A model generated the notes under the pieces. That model was not told the origin of the DNA. It did no database searches and saw only the letters and a program-made list of their open reading frames with translations. A program made the position numbers and the translations under genes. From Candidatus Gastranaerophilales bacterium (GTDB lineage: Bacteria; Cyanobacteriota; Vampirovibrionia; Gastranaerophilales; Gastranaerophilaceae), in the NCBI GenBank assembly GCA_947589425.1, contig CANQAV010000012.1, positions 1 through 59,486 on the forward strand: a stretch of 59,486 nt of DNA. The letters run 5' to 3'. Positions 2,468 to 33,584 of this stretch are shown in pieces; within the stretch, counting starts at the first letter, position 1, and every line of letters begins with the position of its first letter.

Positions 2468-2851
2468 ATGAGAGATGATATTAAAGAATTTAGCGCAGTG
2501 GAGCAAGTTGCAAGAAAATTTTGTGAAGCCGTAAAAAAGGGCGATAGCTCAATCGTTAAACCATATTTTTATGAAAAAGCCTGTTTTTTTGGGCAATTAA
2601 ACGAACAAACTTATCAATCAGGCTCAATTGAAGAATTTTATAAAACCATTGATACCTTTGGTGCATGTGATGATAATTATATTTCAAGAGTTGATGTAAT
2701 ATCGCTTGAAAAAACTATTGCAACAGTTAGAGTAATTGAAGACAACTGGCACGGATATAAATTTACCGACTTTTTAATTATGAATAAAATTAATGGCACT
2801 TGGAAAATAGTTTCAAAAGTTTATGATACATTAGAAAACTTAAATGAATAA
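2468..2851 (+). CDS. NTF2-like protein (putative lumazine-binding family)
   Basis: This 127-residue cytoplasmic protein matches the NTF2/SnoaL fold of the putative lumazine-binding family: an N-terminal helix (AVEQVARKFCEAVKKGD), the YFYEKACFFGQ segment, an ISRVDVISLEKTIATVRV strand pair, and the closing TDFLIMNKINGTWKIVSKVY motif. These domains form a cone that binds small molecules; most stand-alone members have no assigned substrate. It is monocistronic with its own promoter and a hairpin terminator straight after the stop. Confidence 0.75.
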   Translation: MRDDIKEFSAVEQVARKFCEAVKKGDSSIVKPYFYEKACFFGQLNEQTYQSGSIEEFYKTIDTFGACDDNYISRVDVISLEKTIATVRVIEDNWHGYKFTDFLIMNKINGTWKIVSKVYDTLENLNE

Positions 2852-2856
2852 TAAAT

Positions 2857-2888
2857 AAGCCGATAGTTCAATCGCTATCGGCTTTTTA
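2857..2888. terminator. Intrinsic terminator, probably bidirectional
   Basis: Ten-base perfect arms (AAGCCGATAG at 2857-2866, CTATCGGCTT at 2875-2884) with an 8-base loop run into a T tract. On the reverse strand the hairpin is followed by TTATTTATTATT, so it can also stop the dxs-like transcript. Confidence 0.85.
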
Positions 2889-2910
2889 TAAAATTACTTT
2901 GAGAAATTTA

Positions 2911-4665
2911 TTACTTAATAAATTCTTTAATGACATTTGCAAGATTTTCTGATGAAATGCCGTTTTCTTTTAATAGTTCATCAGCGTCAAAATCCGTATG
3001 GAATGCTTTAGATATGCCGTAATTTAAGACTTTCATGCCGCTATTTCCATAGAATGATGCAATGTTTTGTCCGTATCCGCTCATCAGTTCGCCATCTTCT
3101 ATTGTGATAACAAGTTGATGTTCTTTTTTTAATTCATTTAGCAGTTCTTCATCTAAGCCTGTCAAAAACCTTGGATTTATAACCGTAATATCAAGCCCTG
3201 TTTCATCTTTAACTTTTTTAGCAGTTTTCAAAGCTAAGGGCATTAAAATACCAACAGCAAATAATGCTACAATAGAGCCCATTTTTTCAACTTTATTTTT
3301 ATTATATTTTGAATAATCGGTTGTGTCTTTAATTCCTGTTTCAGGTAAATTTGCAGGCACTCTAATTCCAATCGGGTGTTCCTTTTGCGTGGTTGCAAAT
3401 TTAAACATTTGGAAATATTCTTCTTTAGTTGTAGGTGCTAAATAGATTAAATTTGGAATATGAGCAAACATTTGAATATCGCATAAACCGATATGTGTAT
3501 TAGAATTCAATCCATATACCCCCGGCTGCAATACGAGCATAGTTGCAGGTGCGTCATTTAAGCATAAGTCGTGAGATATTTGATCATATGTCCTTTGAAA
3601 AAATGGTGCAAATGTACCAAAAACAACTGTTGCGCCATTTTTTGCAAGACCTGTGCTCATAGCAACCATATTTTCTTCTGCAATTCCGACATCAATAAAT
3701 TGACCACTACTAACATATTCTTCCCTTACTCCTTTTACCATTCCAAGCCCCATGGGAGTCGCTGCATTTAAAACTATCGCTCTTGAATTTGTATCAAGCA
3801 ATTCTTTAATGCTCTTGAATACGGGGTCATCAACTTCTTGCACCTTATATTTAGGACTTCCGTCTTCTACGTTAAACGGGCCTCCGGCATGCCAGGATTC
3901 TCTATCTTTTTCGGCATAGGCTAAGCCTTTTCCTTTTATTGTATGGATATGTAATACTATCGGGTGGTCAATATCTTTTACGCTTTTGAATAAATCAACA
4001 AGGCTTTTTATATCATGCCCGTCATCTAAATATTTGTAGTCCAAACCGAAAGATTTAAAAATATTGTTTGTGGAATTGCCGTTTGTTTCTCTTAATTCTT
4101 TTAATGTTTTATACATACCGCCATGGTTTTCTGCGATACTTTGGTCATTGTCGTTTAGAATAATAATTAAGTTTTTATTATATTCTCCTGCGTAATCTAA
4201 GCCTTCTAATGCTTCACCGCCTGATAGAGAGCCATCTCCGATAATTGCTACAATATTACCTTTTGCGTGATTTAAATCTCTTCCCTTAGCAAGACCTAAA
4301 GCTAAAGAAACAGAGGTTGAAGTGTGTCCTACGGTAAAAATATCGTGTTCACTCTCAAGTGGGTTAGTGTATCCCGTTACATCGCTAAAATGATTGCTGT
4401 CTAAAAACGCTTCTTTTCTTCCCGTTAAGATTTTATGCGGATAACACTGATGTGAAACGTCAAACACAATTTTATCTTTAGGGGAATCAAAAACATAATG
4501 AAGTGCAACCGTCATTTCAACCATTCCCAAATTCGGGCCGCTATGACCTCCGGCTTTACTGATTTTATTTATCAAAGCTTTTCTTGTTTCATCCGCTAAA
4601 ACTTTCAGTTCTTCAATATTTAATTTTTTAATGTCCTGTGGGCCATTGATATTTTCTAAATACAT
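2911..4665 (-). CDS. 1-deoxy-D-xylulose-5-phosphate synthase-like transketolase
   Basis: This 584-residue enzyme has the DXS three-domain plan: a thiamine diphosphate domain with His41, His114 (GHTSTS), the GDGSLSGG motif (143-150) and NDND (171-174), then a pyrimidine-binding domain and a C-terminal transketolase domain. DXS condenses pyruvate and glyceraldehyde 3-phosphate into the first MEP-pathway intermediate. It is shorter than usual DXS (about 620-640) and reads FDVSHQCYPHKILTG and SIAENHGG where canonical enzymes have a VGHQ and a different SI-x-x-N loop. These are marks of the DXS-like subgroup often found as an extra copy. It is co-transcribed with, and 15 bases after, a TetR regulator, which argues for a conditional role rather than the housekeeping MEP step. 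Confidence 0.8.
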   Translation of the reverse strand: MYLENINGPQDIKKLNIEELKVLADETRKALINKISKAGGHSGPNLGMVEMTVALHYVFDSPKDKIVFDVSHQCYPHKILTGRKEAFLDSNHFSDVTGYTNPLESEHDIFTVGHTSTSVSLALGLAKGRDLNHAKGNIVAIIGDGSLSGGEALEGLDYAGEYNKNLIIILNDNDQSIAENHGGMYKTLKELRETNGNSTNNIFKSFGLDYKYLDDGHDIKSLVDLFKSVKDIDHPIVLHIHTIKGKGLAYAEKDRESWHAGGPFNVEDGSPKYKVQEVDDPVFKSIKELLDTNSRAIVLNAATPMGLGMVKGVREEYVSSGQFIDVGIAEENMVAMSTGLAKNGATVVFGTFAPFFQRTYDQISHDLCLNDAPATMLVLQPGVYGLNSNTHIGLCDIQMFAHIPNLIYLAPTTKEEYFQMFKFATTQKEHPIGIRVPANLPETGIKDTTDYSKYNKNKVEKMGSIVALFAVGILMPLALKTAKKVKDETGLDITVINPRFLTGLDEELLNELKKEHQLVITIEDGELMSGYGQNIASFYGNSGMKVLNYGISKAFHTDFDADELLKENGISSENLANVIKEFIK

Positions 4666-4680
4666 AGCTATCCTTTCTTT

Positions 4681-5289
4681 TTACTTTTTCATTTCTTTAT
4701 TTAAATAGGGGTATATAATTGAGCCTAAAATTTTTTTACAGAATTTTTCCATGCGTTCGCTATAACTATATTCTCCGCCTGAAATATCCCAGCAGAGCAT
4801 TTGACCGTAGAGGATATCTGCTAAAGTTTGCGTTAGCAATTCAACAGGAGTATCTTTTTTTAACTCGCCCCTTAGAATTGCATCATTTAATAATCTGCTA
4901 ATTGCAGAGATATCCGCTGACAGTTTGTTTTTTCCGTCAGGGAAAATATCAGGGTCAACTGAATTTCTAACCCATTCCTGACATAATTTCAGACTGCTAT
5001 TTTCGATATATTGCGCAAAACTTGTCATATAGACTGCAAGGCGTTCTATAATTCCTGCATTATATGCTAAAGCCTCATCATAAAGTTTTTTGAACATATA
5101 GTCACTCAGAGCAAAAACAATATCTTCCTTGCGTTTAAAATAGGTATAAAATGTTCCGTTCGATACACCCGAGGCTTTTGTAATTTCTTCAATAGATGTA
5201 TTTATGAGCCCTTTTTTGCATATAATATTTTTAGCCGTTTCAATAAGTTTCTTTTTTGTTTCTTGAGCTGCAAGCTGTCTGTTTGTCAC
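4681..5289 (-). CDS. TetR/AcrR-family transcriptional regulator
   Basis: This 202-residue protein has the TetR N-terminal helix-turn-helix at about residues 12-58, including INTSIEEITKASGVSNGTFY and TYFKRKEDI. A helical ligand and dimer domain of the usual length follows. The start is GTG, supported by an AGAGGT site nine bases upstream; there is no better ATG. It is the first gene of an operon with the DXS-like enzyme. A 10-base inverted repeat overlaps its promoter, so autorepression with release by a small ligand is the likely control. The ligand cannot be read from the sequence. Confidence 0.85.
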   Translation of the reverse strand: MTNRQLAAQETKKKLIETAKNIICKKGLINTSIEEITKASGVSNGTFYTYFKRKEDIVFALSDYMFKKLYDEALAYNAGIIERLAVYMTSFAQYIENSSLKLCQEWVRNSVDPDIFPDGKNKLSADISAISRLLNDAILRGELKKDTPVELLTQTLADILYGQMLCWDISGGEYSYSERMEKFCKKILGSIIYPYLNKEMKK

Positions 5290-5319
5290 AATTACTACCT
5301 CTTTACTTTTATAATTTTT

Positions 5320-5355
5320 ATTGTACCATATTCATTGAATATAAGTCAATGAATA
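5320..5355 (-). promoter_or_regulatory. TetR-type operator over the tetR-dxs promoter
   Basis: On the reverse strand a -35 TTGACT (complement of 5344-5349) and -10 TACAAT (complement of 5320-5325) are 18 bases apart. A perfect inverted repeat, TATTCATTGA at 5329-5338 and TCAATGAATA at 5346-5355 with a 7-base centre, covers the spacer and -35. This placement would block RNA polymerase when the TetR dimer binds. Confidence 0.75.
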
Positions 5356-5394
5356 ATATTCAATTTTTGTATAAATTAAAAAAGCAAGATAATT

Positions 5395-5502
5395 ATGGAA
5401 GAAATTGGAATTGATATCATAAATCAAGCGCCGAAGCGAATTGAAGAAAAAAAGAAACAGTCGGTGTTTGCCTTTATATTAACAATATCAGGCGATATTT
5501 AA
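5395..5502 (+). CDS. Possible 35-codon small ORF
   Basis: An ATG at 5395 opens 35 codons (MEEIGIDIINQAPKRIEE, a lysine-rich stretch, then SVFAFILTISGDI). There is no convincing ribosome site. It may be the remnant of a longer gene or chance; it is listed because it is the only coding-like content of the 325-base gap between tetR and the repeat-protein gene. Confidence 0.15.
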   Translation: MEEIGIDIINQAPKRIEEKKKQSVFAFILTISGDI

Positions 5503-5614: not shown

Positions 5615-8395
5615 ATGAACATAAACCCCTTAAATTTATATTTTAAGCCGATAACAAATAATATAGGGCAAGGACACAGGCTGCATGAAAAATCCGAAAT
5701 AAATTTATTGAAAAGAATTGAAAACTGCGATACTTTTGAAGCTTCAACTCCCCCTCGGCAAAATTTTGACATTTCAAAATATAATTTTATGCTTGACCCT
5801 GAAAAAAAGGAAATAATTCATGAAAAGTTTGAAGGTATTGAATTTACAAATGTAAATGCACAGCTTGCAGATATAATTTTATCAAACGAAAAACTATATA
5901 ACAGTAAAAACGGCTCCGTAAGAATAGGGGCAATCATGAAATCTGCCAAAACGCCTGAACAAGCCGAAGTTGCACAGACAATTCTTTCTGATGAAAATTT
6001 ATACGGAGCCGAAAACGTGATGATACACGTTAAAGAAATTATTCAAAGCGCAACAAGCCAAAACATTAAAGAAAAAGGCGATATAATGCGCTTATATTGC
6101 TCTGATGAAAAATTTTATAATAACAAAAATATATCAGGCCGGCTCGGAGAAATTATCTTATCAACAACCCCCGAAAATGCACAAGCAAGAGCGGATATAA
6201 TGAACTTATACCGTTTCGACGAAAAACTTTGGGGCAATTCGAATATGGCTCAACGGTTTGGGGATATTATAATTAACACTAACTCAGAAAACGTAAAAAC
6301 AAAAACCAACATAATGAAATTATATTGCTCTGATGAAAAACTGAATAACGGTACTGCAGCCAAATACGCAGGAGACATTATAAGGGCGGCGGATACTCAA
6401 GAGCGTGAAGAATTGGTAAAAACAATTCTTTCGGATGAAAAACTTTTTAACAATAAAAATATTATGGATAATATTTGGAAAATCATTTGTTTTTCATCTT
6501 CCGCCGAAAATATTAAAGCAAAAACGGATTTCATGAATTTTTACTGCCGTAATGAACAGTTCGGCAATAATTGGAATATAGAAGAATATCTTGGCGAAAT
6601 TATTGAAAATATAGATTGCAATAATTATGAACTTATGGAACAAATTCTTTCAACCAAAGGCCTTAGTCTTAAGATTGATGATATTTTTACCATTTTAAAA
6701 AGCTCTCATGGCAAAGGGGGAATGGAATATTTATCTCAAAAAGATTTAAACTCAGTCTTTGATGCTTTGGAGCTTCAAAAACAAAAGGCATTAGGAACAC
6801 CCGAATTATATGTTAACAGGGAATTTGAGTCTGATAATGAAGCTAAACAGGCGGTTGAGAATTTCTTCAATACTAACATAGTTAATTTAATGGTTATGTC
6901 GTCAATATTTGACAAAGAAGCTTTTAACGGCTTGCTGCGCATGAGGTTTAATGATGCCGAAGAATATTTTGAAATTATTGAAAATTTTACAAAAGAAGAA
7001 CTTGAACTTATCGAAAACTTAAGTAAATCTTGCAATATTGACGGCAAGCCTTTCATGCCCGTGCAAAAAATTGAATTTATAGATTTAATTATGGCATATA
7101 AAGAAAATAATTTGTCATACGAAAAAATATATTCAATGTTGGAAAACGGCAAAATTGATATAGGACAGCTCAATTTCGATTTGTTTTACGCAATAATGAA
7201 AAATTCGGGTTTAACGGAAGAAGAAATTCAATCCGTACCAAAAGAAAAATTGTTCGCTTGGGATATTAAATATATACATTTATTGTCAAAAGAAATTAAT
7301 GAAGATGAAGATATTGCATTTAACGATTTATTAAGAGCGGGAAATTTGGAAAAAGACTTTCTTCAATATATTCACGACACAAATAATGTTTACGGAAAAG
7401 CAAACGCAACAACAAAAGCTTTATATGAGGAATTAGGATTAAATTACGATAAGTGGCTGAGTCCGTCCAAAGAAAACAAAGTTCATTTTATTGCAAAAGA
7501 CAAAAATACGGAGCGGTTATCGCAAATTGTAAATCAAATTACTCAAGATATGAATGTTCTGATAAAAACACCGGCAGGACCTTTCTTAAAAAAACAATTC
7601 CCTAAGTTTATAAAAGGAGATGATTTTTTTATACCGAATGAATATTCAACCAATAAAGCAAAATTACAAGAATTATTAATTTTATTTACCGATACATCAG
7701 ACAAAGGACAGCTTTCTCAAATTTGGAAAAGAGCAAAAATTAATTCAGCTAATTCAAATCCTTCTAAGGCTTCAAGTGCAAAAAATACTCTGACTGTTTT
7801 AGAGCACTTAAATCAAAGATTAGAGGACTTGTCAAAAATTCAAGAAACAAAAACAGCCAAAACATTAGATTTAACAATTAAAATGTGGGATAGAGCTCCT
7901 CAAAAAGATATTTTCCAAGGCAATTATTCCTCTTGCTGTATTGCAATGGGCGGAGGAAACGGCTCTGCAATGCCGCATTATATTATGAACAGTTTATATA
8001 ATATGATAGAGCTTGTTGATAATCAAACCGGCAAAACAGTAGGAAATGCGCTTTGCTATTTTATTACAGACGAAGACAATAAACCTGCGTTTGTTATAGA
8101 CAATGTAGAAATTATGAACAATATAAAACCATCGTCGCAAACGGGAATTCAATTAAGAAATTCAATTACTCAATATGCTTCAAATATTTTAAAAGAAATT
8201 GCACCCGGTATTGAGATACCTATTTATATGGGTACATTATATAACGATATACCTTGCGAAGGTTTAAACAAAGGAGAAGGAAAGATATCCTTGTCGGGCG
8301 ATACGGACTGTGAAAAAATTTATATGGATTTATACGGCGGATGGGTTGTTAAAAGTAATTATACCGGTAAACAAAAATTTTATATTTTGAAATAA
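5615..8395 (+). CDS. Large repeat protein with lineage-type tag and C-terminal domain
   Basis: I do not recognise this 926-residue protein by family. It begins MNINPLN and carries DTFEAS near residue 40, like other tagged proteins in this window. Residues 85-330 hold seven copies of a 34-39 residue helical repeat centred on [DN]E[KNQ][LF]-x-[NG] (residues 91, 126, 164, 202, 240, 274, 313) followed by GEII or GDII, so an alpha-solenoid is likely. The middle (400-720) is helical and charged. A compact, different C-terminal domain (about 770-926) contains YSSCCIAMGGGNG, MPHYIMNSLYNMIEL and FVIDNVEI and looks enzymatic or ligand-binding. There is no classical signal peptide. AAGGAAG lies 11 bases before the ATG. 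It is monocistronic. Confidence 0.55.
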   Translation: MNINPLNLYFKPITNNIGQGHRLHEKSEINLLKRIENCDTFEASTPPRQNFDISKYNFMLDPEKKEIIHEKFEGIEFTNVNAQLADIILSNEKLYNSKNGSVRIGAIMKSAKTPEQAEVAQTILSDENLYGAENVMIHVKEIIQSATSQNIKEKGDIMRLYCSDEKFYNNKNISGRLGEIILSTTPENAQARADIMNLYRFDEKLWGNSNMAQRFGDIIINTNSENVKTKTNIMKLYCSDEKLNNGTAAKYAGDIIRAADTQEREELVKTILSDEKLFNNKNIMDNIWKIICFSSSAENIKAKTDFMNFYCRNEQFGNNWNIEEYLGEIIENIDCNNYELMEQILSTKGLSLKIDDIFTILKSSHGKGGMEYLSQKDLNSVFDALELQKQKALGTPELYVNREFESDNEAKQAVENFFNTNIVNLMVMSSIFDKEAFNGLLRMRFNDAEEYFEIIENFTKEELELIENLSKSCNIDGKPFMPVQKIEFIDLIMAYKENNLSYEKIYSMLENGKIDIGQLNFDLFYAIMKNSGLTEEEIQSVPKEKLFAWDIKYIHLLSKEINEDEDIAFNDLLRAGNLEKDFLQYIHDTNNVYGKANATTKALYEELGLNYDKWLSPSKENKVHFIAKDKNTERLSQIVNQITQDMNVLIKTPAGPFLKKQFPKFIKGDDFFIPNEYSTNKAKLQELLILFTDTSDKGQLSQIWKRAKINSANSNPSKASSAKNTLTVLEHLNQRLEDLSKIQETKTAKTLDLTIKMWDRAPQKDIFQGNYSSCCIAMGGGNGSAMPHYIMNSLYNMIELVDNQTGKTVGNALCYFITDEDNKPAFVIDNVEIMNNIKPSSQTGIQLRNSITQYASNILKEIAPGIEIPIYMGTLYNDIPCEGLNKGEGKISLSGDTDCEKIYMDLYGGWVVKSNYTGKQKFYILK

Positions 8396-10025: not shown

Positions 10026-10778
10026 ATGAACAAAACTCAAAACGAAACATCGGGCGAAGCAAAAGATATTATTGAAAATGCTCAAATTGAAGCTCAAAAA
10101 ATTATAAATCTTGCCCTAAAAAAAGCAAGATTTATACTGAATGAAAGATCGCTTGTAAATAAAGTTCGAAAAGAAAGCGAATTGATAAAAGAACAAGCCC
10201 TAAAAGATTGTTTAAAGATAAGAGAAGAAAATTCTTTAACCCATTCAATTTATAGTTACCACGAAACTCGCTACATCGGCTCAAATCGCTGGATTGTGCG
10301 AAATATAGAAAGTATGAAATACGGTCTTTTGAATGAAAAAGGTGATTTTGTTGTCCCTTGTCAATATGATGATATGAATACAAGCATTGAAGAATTTCTT
10401 GAAGGGGAACAGAAGTGTATTAATGTGATTGTTGATGAATACGGATATAGCGAGGGCGAAACTTGCCGTAATTGTTTGAGCGAAAAGCGAGGGATTATGG
10501 ATTTAGACGGGAACTTTATAATTGAACCTAAGTATTCGGATTATATTTATTTTAGCGAGGGGCTTGCTGCCGTTTGCATAATTGACGAATCTCGAGCGTA
10601 TGGAGTTAAATACGGCTTTATTGATGAAAATGATAATACAATTATTCCTTTTATATATGACTATGCGCAAAATTTTATTAACGGCAAGGCTCGAGTGCTA
10701 TTAAACAGTGAAGAATATTTTATTAATAAAAACGGTGACAGAATAAGTAAAAAACTAAAAAGAGAAATTATAAGATGA
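10026..10778 (+). CDS. WG-repeat protein with N-terminal coiled coil
   Basis: This 250-residue protein has an Ala/Glu/Lys-rich helix at residues 8-75 (EAKDIIENAQIEAQKIINLA), then at least three WG-type repeats: YGLLNEKGDFVVPCQYDD, RGIMDLDGNFIIEPKYSD and YGFIDENDNTIIPFIYDY. WG repeats are beta-hairpin units found in bacterial binding or effector proteins. No signal peptide is seen. AAAGGAG precedes the ATG. It overlaps the next gene by four bases (ATGA) and shares its promoter geometry with the gene at 12611. Role unknown; membership of a WYL regulon is inferred. Confidence 0.7.
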   Translation: MNKTQNETSGEAKDIIENAQIEAQKIINLALKKARFILNERSLVNKVRKESELIKEQALKDCLKIREENSLTHSIYSYHETRYIGSNRWIVRNIESMKYGLLNEKGDFVVPCQYDDMNTSIEEFLEGEQKCINVIVDEYGYSEGETCRNCLSEKRGIMDLDGNFIIEPKYSDYIYFSEGLAAVCIIDESRAYGVKYGFIDENDNTIIPFIYDYAQNFINGKARVLLNSEEYFINKNGDRISKKLKREIIR

Positions 10779-13033: not shown

Positions 13034-13541
13034 TAAATTTAAAAAACTTTTGGTAAAATTTTGTTATTTATAAGTCCCATAAATGTCCAATTCGACCGTT
13101 TTGGTGCTTGAGATAATCAATCAATTTCCGACTGCTTTAAAGCCCGACGAATTACCACACTTCGCTCACAATAACTGAGCAATACTTCCGACCAAAACGG
13201 TCTTTCAATATACAACCCCAATGGGTAAGTTTCACGAGAGGGCAAAAGCGAAGCGGTTGCTCCGAGATGCAGTCCGCACAAATTTGCTCCTGAGGAAATC
13301 AAAGATTTCCACGTCGCCATAGAAATGTCTACGCCCTGTTCGCCAGACTTCAACAGTCTGCCGTCACGGGCTTCGCACCCTTGTGCCCTCGTATTCGTTC
13401 GTCAAGTTCGCCCTGCGAACTAAGACTCACTCTGCTCGGGTTAGCTCCTGAGGAAATCAAAGATTTCCACGTCGCCATCGTACAGCTCCGGCGAAAGCTC
13501 ACCGCTTCCGCCTGGGAGCCTCGGCTTACGCATAAAAAATT
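13034..13541. repeat. GC-richer structured repeat cluster next to tRNA-Phe
   Basis: This stretch is clearly GC-richer than its neighbours. A 35-base direct repeat occurs at 13286-13320 and 13444-13478, each with an internal hairpin GGAAATC-AAA-GATTTCC. A hairpin CAGACT-TCAAC-AGTCTG lies at 13344-13360. Several overlapping frames can be translated but share these repeats and look noncoding. On the reverse strand the units read GGCGACGTGGAAATC...CAGGAGC, resembling the GTGGCAATC-type intergenic palindromes of many bacteria. Confidence 0.6.
13094..13202. repeat. 12-bp inverted repeat flanking 85 bp
   Basis: GACCGTTTTGGT at 13094-13105 and its exact complement ACCAAAACGGTC at 13191-13202 flank 85 bases without a gene. 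This could be a long-stem RNA or the ends of a tiny mobile element; no transposase or target duplication is visible. Confidence 0.5.
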
Positions 13542-13614
13542 TGCCGCGTCTCGGAATCGAACCAAGGACACAGGGATTTTCAGTCCCTTGCTCTACCAAC
13601 TGAGCTAACGCGGC
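13542..13614 (-). tRNA. tRNA-Phe (GAA)
   Basis: This 73-base cloverleaf on the reverse strand has acceptor GCCGCGT pairing with ACGCGGC, D arm GCTC...GAGC, anticodon stem AGGGA/TCCCT with loop CTGAAAA (anticodon GAA), T arm CTTGG-TTCGATT-CCGAG and discriminator A. CCA is not encoded. Repeats flank its 3' side. Confidence 0.95.
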
Positions 13615-13803
13615 AAATCTATTCAATTTTCAGCAAATCTATTCAATTTTCAATTATTTTTTGCTTATGTCAGCTCAGTTGGTGAAATGTCTTAACGGCT
13701 CCGTTTCACTCGCCTAGGCTAACAAAATAAATCCGTTCAATTAGCATATAGCTACTTAAGCCTTTATCATCATATCAACTAAAGCCTTGAAGTCAAGAAA
13801 AAT

Positions 13804-32420: not shown

Positions 32421-33584
32421 ATGTTTATTAGACCGCTTAATATTATAAATACTTCAACAAATATTTTTCGCACAAAGGAAAACACTTCGACTTCACCTTT
32501 TGTACCTTCTGCGAAAAGTAAAATTTTATCACCTTTAACTCAAGATACAGTAAGCTTTAGCGGCTCGACCGCCCTAAATCATTCCCTTTTAGAGGCATTT
32601 GATAATTATAATGTCTGCAGAGATATAAGCCAAAATGCAGAGCCTGCCGAAACTTATCTTAAAAAAACTCTAAAAAATGCTCTGAGTGAATTTGTTGAAA
32701 GCGATACTAACAACGGGGTAATTTTGCCTGTTGTTTCAAGAGTTAAAACTCCCGACAGTATAAGAGAAAAAGTTGCAAGCGAACTTGAAAACATAATTTT
32801 AAAAGAGCCCTACAAGGCATTCAGCCCCAATGATATTGAAGCCGTTAAAAAAGTTTGCGGTGATATTATCGGAAGCAGAATAATTTTAAAAAGATCGGCT
32901 CCCGAGTATACTTCTAAAATAATAGATGCTCTTATAAAAGAGGTGGAAGCGGGAAGACTTAAAATTACAAAAATTGAAAACTATGAGCCTGATGACATTG
33001 AAGAAAACTGGAAATATTTCCAAAAACAAGATTTAGAAAGATTGCTGGATGCGGTTAACAGCAAAAGAAAAGAATACGGGCAAAAACCAATCGAGCTTAA
33101 TGAAACGCATAAAAGCACGGGATACATGGCGCTTCATCTTGATGTAGATTTATCAAATCCTGATTTTAAAGCAAAAAATAATAACTACAGAGGTGAAATC
33201 CAAATTGTCGGATACGACGTTTCGGGACTTAAAGATGTTGAGGATTTTTGTTATAAATTAAAATCCAAAAAAGATATAAAAAGCGGAAATTTAGCATATA
33301 AACCCTTTGTTGAATATTTTAATCAAAATATGGCAAAAACGGACGAATACCCCGAACTGGACAAAAATTTCCTTGAATATACAAGAAAAGCATATTCAAT
33401 TCAAAGACACAAAGCACCCATGGAAGGAAAATCAAAAGCAAGAAGAAAATACCACATACTTCCCACAATTGAGCAGTGCGGTCTTGAAGGAAAAATCCCC
33501 GAAGCTCTTGATTTTAATAAATTATCAAAGATTAAACACTATTGCGATAAAATTTATGAATTAACAAGCGAAATGAACTCATAA
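32421..33584 (+). CDS. RelA/SpoT-like nucleotidyltransferase with N-terminal tag
   Basis: This 387-residue protein begins MFIRPLN and has a disordered N-terminus ending in DTVSFSG (42-48). Residues about 100-285 carry the alarmone synthetase signatures in order: SRVKTPDSIREK (106-117, the R-x-K-x-x-x-S-I-x-x-K element), DIIGSRIIL (148-156), TGYMALHL (233-240, the G-loop Tyr and His) and GEIQIVG (258-264, Glu for Mg). The (p)ppGpp hydrolase and TGS/ACT regions are absent, so it resembles small alarmone synthetases or toxSAS enzymes that pyrophosphorylate nucleotides or tRNA CCA ends. The C-terminal 100 residues are basic and unassigned. It is monocistronic with no adjacent antitoxin. Confidence 0.68.
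   Translation: MFIRPLNIINTSTNIFRTKENTSTSPFVPSAKSKILSPLTQDTVSFSGSTALNHSLLEAFDNYNVCRDISQNAEPAETYLKKTLKNALSEFVESDTNNGVILPVVSRVKTPDSIREKVASELENIILKEPYKAFSPNDIEAVKKVCGDIIGSRIILKRSAPEYTSKIIDALIKEVEAGRLKITKIENYEPDDIEENWKYFQKQDLERLLDAVNSKRKEYGQKPIELNETHKSTGYMALHLDVDLSNPDFKAKNNNYRGEIQIVGYDVSGLKDVEDFCYKLKSKKDIKSGNLAYKPFVEYFNQNMAKTDEYPELDKNFLEYTRKAYSIQRHKAPMEGKSKARRKYHILPTIEQCGLEGKIPEALDFNKLSKIKHYCDKIYELTSEMNS

What the first reader, a model, noticed from the sequence alone, without database searches (positions are those of the whole stretch)
5615..8395. 926-residue solenoid-plus-enzyme-like protein
Seven helical repeats with a clear [DN]E[KNQ][LF] core at a near-regular 34-39 residue period precede a compact C-terminal domain with YSSCCIAMGGGNG and FVIDNVEI. 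The layout (binding solenoid plus activity domain, N-terminal tag, monocistronic) resembles host-interaction effectors.
Basis: partly seen in the sequence, partly recalled or inferred. Interest (0 to 1): 0.6.

Follow-up and report, generated by a model that had tools for sequence, protein, structure and literature searches.

The report
Repeat-armed GNAT-fold protein of Gastranaerophilales
A gut relative of cyanobacteria carries a 926-residue protein made of a repeat arm that probably grips a target and an acetyltransferase-shaped end with an unusual invariant pair of cysteines; it belongs to a large, arm-swapping family that looks like enzymes aimed at other proteins, but what it modifies, and where, is not known.

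Summary
The 926-codon ORF is intact, and seven [DN]E[KNQ][LF] motifs at 34-39 residue spacing are far above chance. Relatives lie almost entirely in MAGs titled Gastranaerophilales or equivalent. The conserved unit is residues ~372-926. AlphaFold models it confidently (pLDDT 90.8), and its last ~190 residues have the GNAT (Gcn5-related acetyltransferase) fold: folded alone, 41 PDB matches at E<=1e-3, nearly all titled as GNATs. No Pfam, NCBIfam or PHROG family recognises it, and the canonical acyl-CoA motif is absent in 68 of 68 members. Instead F767, G769, C774, C775, E832 and G895 are invariant. The module sits behind unrelated upstream arms (43 of 47 relatives show no detectable arm similarity to this protein) and inside very large proteins, sometimes twice. 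The same repeat arm also precedes other C-termini. No downstream partner gene is conserved. "Host-interaction effector" is plausible but unproven: no secretion signal was shown in this protein, though the genome has a flagellar type III export apparatus and some relatives carry a lineage-specific N-terminal tag. New variant of a known fold; moderate interest.

The parts
5395..5456 (+). 5' remnant (about 21 codons) of a maltose-acetyltransferase-like gene; homology to the duplicated block stops at about 5456, a breakpoint about 160 bases before the start codon
   Evidence: blastn of the window against L130/L131 ends at 5447-5456; intact gene at L131:8610-9212 and in L130 and L110; window sequence
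5615..8395 (+). whole ORF, 926 aa plus stop
5615..5794 (+). residues 1-60: N-terminal lead (MNINPLNLYF...CDTFEAS); no Sec-type hydrophobic signal by eye; tag-like start only
   Evidence: sequence; tag tests not met
5822..6649 (+). residues 70-345: seven ~37-residue repeats with [DN]E[KNQ][LF] core, alpha-solenoid by inference
6728..7480 (+). residues 372-622: conserved, almost all-helical part of the C-terminal module
   Evidence: alignment; model
7481..7501 (+). residues 623-629: strand preceding the helical insertion; in 4 of 27 relatives it joins straight to the GNAT core
   Evidence: model (E252-258)
7514..7858 (+). residues 634-748: helical insertion, absent in 4 of 27 aligned relatives
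7859..8392 (+). residues 749-926: GNAT-fold core
   Evidence: model; fold matches; alignment
7934..7939 (+). C774-C775, invariant cysteine pair (68 of 68)
8108..8110 (+). E832 in the strand VIDNVEI, invariant (68 of 68); candidate general base
   Evidence: the role is inference

Best explanation
It is a targeted modifying enzyme. The N-terminal repeats (70-345) form an alpha-solenoid that binds a particular protein or other macromolecule. The conserved C-terminal module (372-926) carries a GNAT-fold transferase that modifies what the arm holds. Because the canonical acyl-CoA pyrophosphate loop is missing while C774-C775, E832, N830, E799, D802, R760 and Y903 are kept, I expect transfer through a cysteine (a ping-pong acyl or aminoacyl intermediate, with E832 as base) or from a donor other than free acetyl-CoA. 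Shown: ORF, repeats, conserved module, GNAT fold of the model, arm/module recombination, patchy presence in one bacterial family. Inferred: solenoid binding, enzyme activity, the roles of the cysteines and E832, and that the target lies outside the cell (host, protist or neighbouring microbe).
For: GNAT fold: domain model pLDDT 90.6, pTM 0.84; Foldseek 41 PDB matches E<=1e-3, best 1.3e-5 (AtaT), the 50 listed rows GNATs by title except a few whose titles do not say, such as 7byy and 3i9s; VIA Z up to 9.4 (7n1l_O, rmsd 3.5 over 126), 106 of 1000 chains with Z>=8, the 50 rows shown GNAT or GNAT-related as far as titles tell. Active-site-like conservation of polar residues across 68 divergent sequences. 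Modularity: for the window's module against 47 relatives, only 4 have a detectably similar upstream arm; at 50-69% module identity 20 of 173 pairs share an arm. Repeat arms are also found on proteins without the module. Accessory behaviour: 53 of 191 family genomes, 2 of the 10 listed in the same genus; a 93-aa remnant in G145.
Against: No catalytic assay or known homologue. The canonical GNAT motif is absent (0 of 68), so the domain might bind something without catalysis. No secretion signal was shown in this protein. TM-scores to solved GNATs are modest (0.38-0.58 normalised by target), and VIA Z of 8-9 is only somewhat above that tool's background. Sequence-profile comparison with a GNAT of the same genome finds nothing. 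Arm similarity was judged by blastp, so old shared ancestry of arms could be missed.
Confidence: 0.5

Rival explanations
1. An intracellular regulatory or housekeeping transferase: the repeats dock onto a bacterial complex (ribosome, tRNA, envelope machinery) and the GNAT-fold domain modifies it inside the producing cell.
For: Nearest folds include intracellular enzymes (RimI-type 7n1l, NatD, tRNA-acetylating AtaT/TacT). No signal peptide by eye.
Against: Present in only 53 of 191 family genomes and 2 of the 10 listed in the genus; arms exchanged wholesale; up to 8 matching places (pieces) in one genome; decay in a relative. A housekeeping enzyme would be stable and single.
Confidence: 0.2
2. 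A toxin for competition between bacteria, of the polymorphic-toxin kind, with the GNAT-fold domain as the toxic tip and an immunity gene beside it.
For: Modular build; tRNA-acetylating GNAT toxins are among the best fold matches (6ajm, 5zgn).
Against: No conserved neighbour: first downstream ORFs of 64 copies fall into many clusters, the largest of 6. The module is often internal or doubled in very large proteins rather than a swapped C-terminal tip. It is the N-terminal arm that varies.
Confidence: 0.13
3. A non-catalytic binding or assembly module that keeps the GNAT fold as a scaffold, with the cysteine pair structural or metal/redox sensing.
For: Absent acyl-CoA motif, 0 of 68; helical insertion inside the domain in 23 of 27 rows.
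Against: Six invariant and eight nearly invariant positions, several polar and concentrated in the CC loop and central strands of the sequence, are typical of active sites.
Confidence: 0.17

Closest known systems
GNAT superfamily (fold matches: AtaT 6ajm, RimI-like 7n1l, NatD 4u9w, SSAT 2b3v)
   Same: Order of strands and helices of the core and overall fold; a conserved acidic residue in the central strand, as in Gcn5 (recalled)
   Different: No [QR]xxGx[GA] pyrophosphate loop (0 of 68); invariant vicinal cysteines; helical insertion; not recognised by Pfam, NCBIfam or PHROGs
VipF, GNAT effector of Legionella (structure 7wx7; PMC10936415, seen as search listing and start of abstract only)
   Same: GNAT fold (Z 8.3 over 114 residues); idea of a GNAT-type effector with a protein target
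   Different: VipF belongs to the Dot/Icm-delivered effectors (listing); no repeat arm is recalled for it; no sequence relation found here; delivery and target unknown here
Repeat-armed effector enzymes such as IpaH/SspH (LRR arm plus E3 ligase) and ankyrin effectors (recalled)
   Same: Architecture: variable repeat arm chooses the target, constant enzyme follows
   Different: Other repeat, other enzyme fold, known secretion systems; comparison is of layout only, not tested
PcfJ-like proteins (PF14284)
   Same: Cysteine motif before beta strands (LSHCVG in the L122 sequence); one weak fold match in the viral library (rank 6, E 0.037)
   Different: Profile comparison with a PcfJ of the same genus gives nothing

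Membership tests
GNAT superfamily (acyl-CoA N-acyltransferases) | GNAT fold of the core | tested here: met
GNAT superfamily (acyl-CoA N-acyltransferases) | Motif A, [QR]xxGx[GA], after strand 4 (acyl-CoA pyrophosphate binding; motif recalled) | tested here: not met
   0 of 68 members of A2 between residues 829 and 854
GNAT superfamily (acyl-CoA N-acyltransferases) | Recognition by GNAT sequence profiles | tested here: not met
   68 members against Pfam at E<=1: the 25 families shown (of 40) hold no GNAT catalytic family; one PHROG acetyltransferase match in 1 of 68 at 0.039; hhalign with a RimI-like protein of the same genome, no match
GNAT superfamily (acyl-CoA N-acyltransferases) | Acyl-CoA binding and transfer activity | not testable with these tools
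   needs protein
Alpha-solenoid repeat proteins | Tandem repeats of regular period | tested here: met
   4-17 copies at mostly 34-38 residues in relatives
Alpha-solenoid repeat proteins | Helical repeat fold | not tested
Secreted effector | Secretion signal in this protein | tested here: inconclusive
   strict tag regex and tag matrix not met; no general type III predictor at hand
Secreted effector | A dedicated secretion system in the genome | tested here: inconclusive
   no VirD4-like protein; full-length FlhA, FliF and flagellin present, i.e. a flagellar export apparatus
Secreted effector | Translocation into or release towards a target cell | not testable with these tools
   needs experiment
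Polymorphic toxin / toxin-immunity pair | Conserved adjacent immunity gene | tested here: not met
   largest cluster of first downstream ORFs is 6 of 64
PcfJ (PF14284) | Profile similarity | tested here: inconclusive
   hhalign against one member, no match

The most novel reading that the evidence does not exclude
Gastranaerophilales, gut relatives of cyanobacteria with no effectors known to me, deploy a lineage-specific arsenal of large, often tagged, arm-swapping effector enzymes exported through their flagellar type III apparatus. This protein represents a new class of GNAT-fold transferases in it that work through an invariant Cys-Cys/Glu centre instead of the acyl-CoA loop.
Probability: 0.18. 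Interest if true: 0.85.

Novelty: new variant of a known kind. Interest (0 to 1): 0.52.

Why it matters
Gastranaerophilales live in animal and human guts, and little is known of how they deal with hosts, protists or neighbours. A family of recombining repeat-armed transferases gives concrete genes to test. If the GNAT fold here really works without the acyl-CoA loop and with two cysteines, it would add a chemistry to one of the commonest enzyme folds. The shared N-terminal tag seen on unrelated proteins would, if it is a sorting signal, reveal the whole repertoire at once.

Tried and rejected
Weak Pfam matches of the whole protein (GAPDH C-terminal domain 7e-4, below its cut-off; Imm26 0.086) were taken as chance: the matched GAPDH stretch (701-766) starts in the helical insertion and ends in the core, and the solved-structure search gave only E 0.65.

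Phage origin: no relative in viral contigs (21 pattern stretches, 0 relatives) and none in phage records. PcfJ kinship: not supported. Toxin-immunity pairing: not supported.

N-terminal tag as a property of this protein: not shown. The loose tag regex itself barely exceeds chance in the genome sample (9 of 379 ORFs; shuffles 5.1 +/- 2.1), although family members have it more often (10 of 46; Fisher p 4e-6, relatedness not corrected).

Pfam matches of the repeat arms of relatives (e.g. UAE_UbL 1.3e-12 summed over 7 stretches in L136) are read as artefacts of repetition, as no known repeat family matched. Families absent from the structure lists are not excluded by them. Residues 1-371 were never folded, and the helical part 372-622 was not searched on its own.

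Paper searches: 'Gastranaerophilales' (467 papers, 30 listed), 'Melainabacteria+effector+secretion' (34, 20 listed), 'Vampirovibrionia+ankyrin' (1), 'GNAT+effector+solenoid+acetyltransferase' (5), 'Melainabacteria+type III secretion' (3), and two more. No listed title named this protein family or an effector of Gastranaerophilales; this is no proof of absence. In PMC4451040 I read 12 passages only.

Full report
Observation. The ORF at 5615-8395 is intact and encodes 926 residues. The seven [DN]E[KNQ][LF] motifs and their 34-39 residue spacing are exactly as described and far beyond chance; self-comparison peaks at 38 residues. GC of the gene is 31.7% against 33.2% for the window.

Organism and distribution. 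The window lies in a 1.87 Mb genome, 99.8% complete. A scan of named genomes with the C-terminal alignment returned 71 relatives among 83 pattern stretches. Nearly all record titles say Candidatus Gastranaerophilales, Melainabacteria, 'Cyanobacteria' or unclassified/uncultured bacterium, many from gut or rumen. The few others (Muribaculaceae, Clostridia, Brachyspira) are probably mis-titled; for the Muribaculaceae one the next gene matches the one beside a Melainabacteria copy. By whole-genome search 53 of 191 genomes of the GTDB family match the protein, 2 of the 10 listed in the same genus. With the domain profile 39 of 386 genomes across the phylum match, all labelled as the same family f1. 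There is one copy in the own genome. No relative was found in viral contigs or phage records. So this is an accessory, lineage-bound family.

Anatomy. Residues 1-60 are a lead without evident Sec signal; 70-345 are the repeats; 372-926 are the conserved module. AlphaFold with 27 aligned sequences models 372-926 at pLDDT 90.8, pTM 0.85: a long run of helices, then a mixed alpha/beta domain. The last 193 residues folded alone with 68 sequences give pLDDT 90.6. With the long model Foldseek lists GNATs first (E 0.02, probability 1.00) and the VIA-align rows are GNATs and N-myristoyltransferases, which share the fold. With the domain alone the match is clear: 41 PDB chains at E<=1e-3, best 1.3e-5, and Z up to 9.4, the rows shown being GNAT or GNAT-related as far as their titles say. 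A strand at 623-629 and a helical insertion (633-739) precede the core; the insertion has no residue in 4 of 27 relatives, so the strand is probably part of the same sheet.

What is conserved. In 68 non-redundant domains (cut at 85% identity from 107 found) F767, G769, C774, C775, E832 and G895 are invariant, and R760, N770, N796, E799, D802, N830, Y854 and Y903 reach 90%. The canonical GNAT motif [QR]xxGx[GA] after the fourth strand occurs in 0 of 68. No member hits a GNAT family in the Pfam rows shown (25 of 40 families), NCBIfam finds nothing for the window protein, and PHROGs give one weak acetyltransferase match in 68. Hence fold: GNAT. Membership of the acyl-CoA family in the strict sense: a defining feature was tested and not met.

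Modularity. The module's relatives carry unrelated upstream arms. Against 47 other modules with at least 220 residues upstream, blastp finds a similar 400-residue arm in 4. Over all pairs, 20 of 173 at 50-69% module identity share an arm, against 6 of 7 at 80% or more. The module also sits inside open frames of 2300-4052 residues, twice in L037, L038, L046, L047 and L048 (the last three look near-identical). Conversely the repeat arm, with 4 to 17 copies in ORFs having at least four, stands before other C-termini; two of eight scanned show weak HD-domain matches. The first downstream gene is not conserved (largest cluster 6 of 64), which speaks against a toxin-immunity pair.

Locus. A block of transketolase-like gene, TetR gene and the first 21 codons of a maltose-acetyltransferase-like gene (about 2851-5456) is 87.6% identical to another contig of the same genome and 88.5% to a relative. 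In both, and at a third place in the own genome, the acetyltransferase gene is intact. In the window it is cut at about 5456, so the DNA with our gene was probably joined there by a rearrangement. A same-genus genome, G145, keeps a 93-residue ORF consisting of a start like those of family members and the last ~50 residues of one.

Delivery. The protein itself fails my tag tests. Yet a motif PLxxDTVSFxG recurs in the lineage: the DNA pattern for PLxxD[T/I]V[S/T/C]F gives 24 matches in 40 genomes against 2 for the reversed pattern, and 21 of 24 lie 25-44 residues after an ATG. Among those ORFs are RelA/SpoT-like proteins (6 of 20 scanned at E<=1e-3, 4 of them over Pfam's cut-off), a pentapeptide protein and one member of the present family (L171). 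One repeat-arm protein, L136, has it too. The genome has a full-length FlhA, FliF and flagellin, and an extra soluble FlhA-cytosolic-domain homologue, but no VirD4-like protein. A flagellar-type export route is thus possible, not shown. PMC4451040 (passages read) proposes type IV secretion of effectors for the related predator Vampirovibrio and notes flagella in some Gastranaerophilales.

Judgement. Structural reading (repeat arm plus GNAT-fold domain in an arm-swapping family): about 0.9. That it is an enzyme: about 0.75. That it acts outside the producing cell: about 0.5. The chemistry through C774/C775 and E832 is a proposal.

Noticed in passing
window 32421-33584 (tag at 32532-32558); L155-L178: Lineage-specific N-terminal motif LxPLxxDTVSFxG, 25-44 residues after the start, on unrelated proteins (RelA/SpoT-like, pentapeptide, a GNAT-module protein, unknowns); 24 matches in 40 genomes against 2 for the reversed pattern. 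Possible sorting or export signal.
   Followed up: partly
L179:10082-11530 (G000:C13): Free-standing homologue of the cytosolic domain of FlhA (E 2.7e-23 to 3mix) without the membrane part, beside the genome's complete FlhA at C3.
   Followed up: partly
window 2851-5456; L130; L131: Transketolase-like/TetR/maltose-acetyltransferase-like block duplicated within the genome and truncated at about 5456 in the window.
   Followed up: partly
window 13283-13483: Dispersed ~200-bp repeat beside tRNA-Phe (13541-13615); copies in the sampled stretches L104, L106, L108 and L121.
   Followed up: no
L133:915-6112 (G145): Cluster holding a repeat ORF that ends in a kinase-like sequence (by eye), a remnant of a family member, and an ORF with an HELGH motif and a weak metalloprotease match.
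   Followed up: no
L032 downstream ORF (136 aa) and L133:3547-3894: Small related-looking proteins (xKPLDIN motif, by eye) next to members or tagged ORFs; possible chaperones.
   Followed up: no
L111:7905-10877 (own genome): 990-residue ankyrin-repeat protein starting MKISPI...YFSGQ.
   Followed up: no
window 10026-10778: WG-repeat protein (Pfam WG_beta_rep 2.2e-23) downstream of the finding.
   Followed up: no
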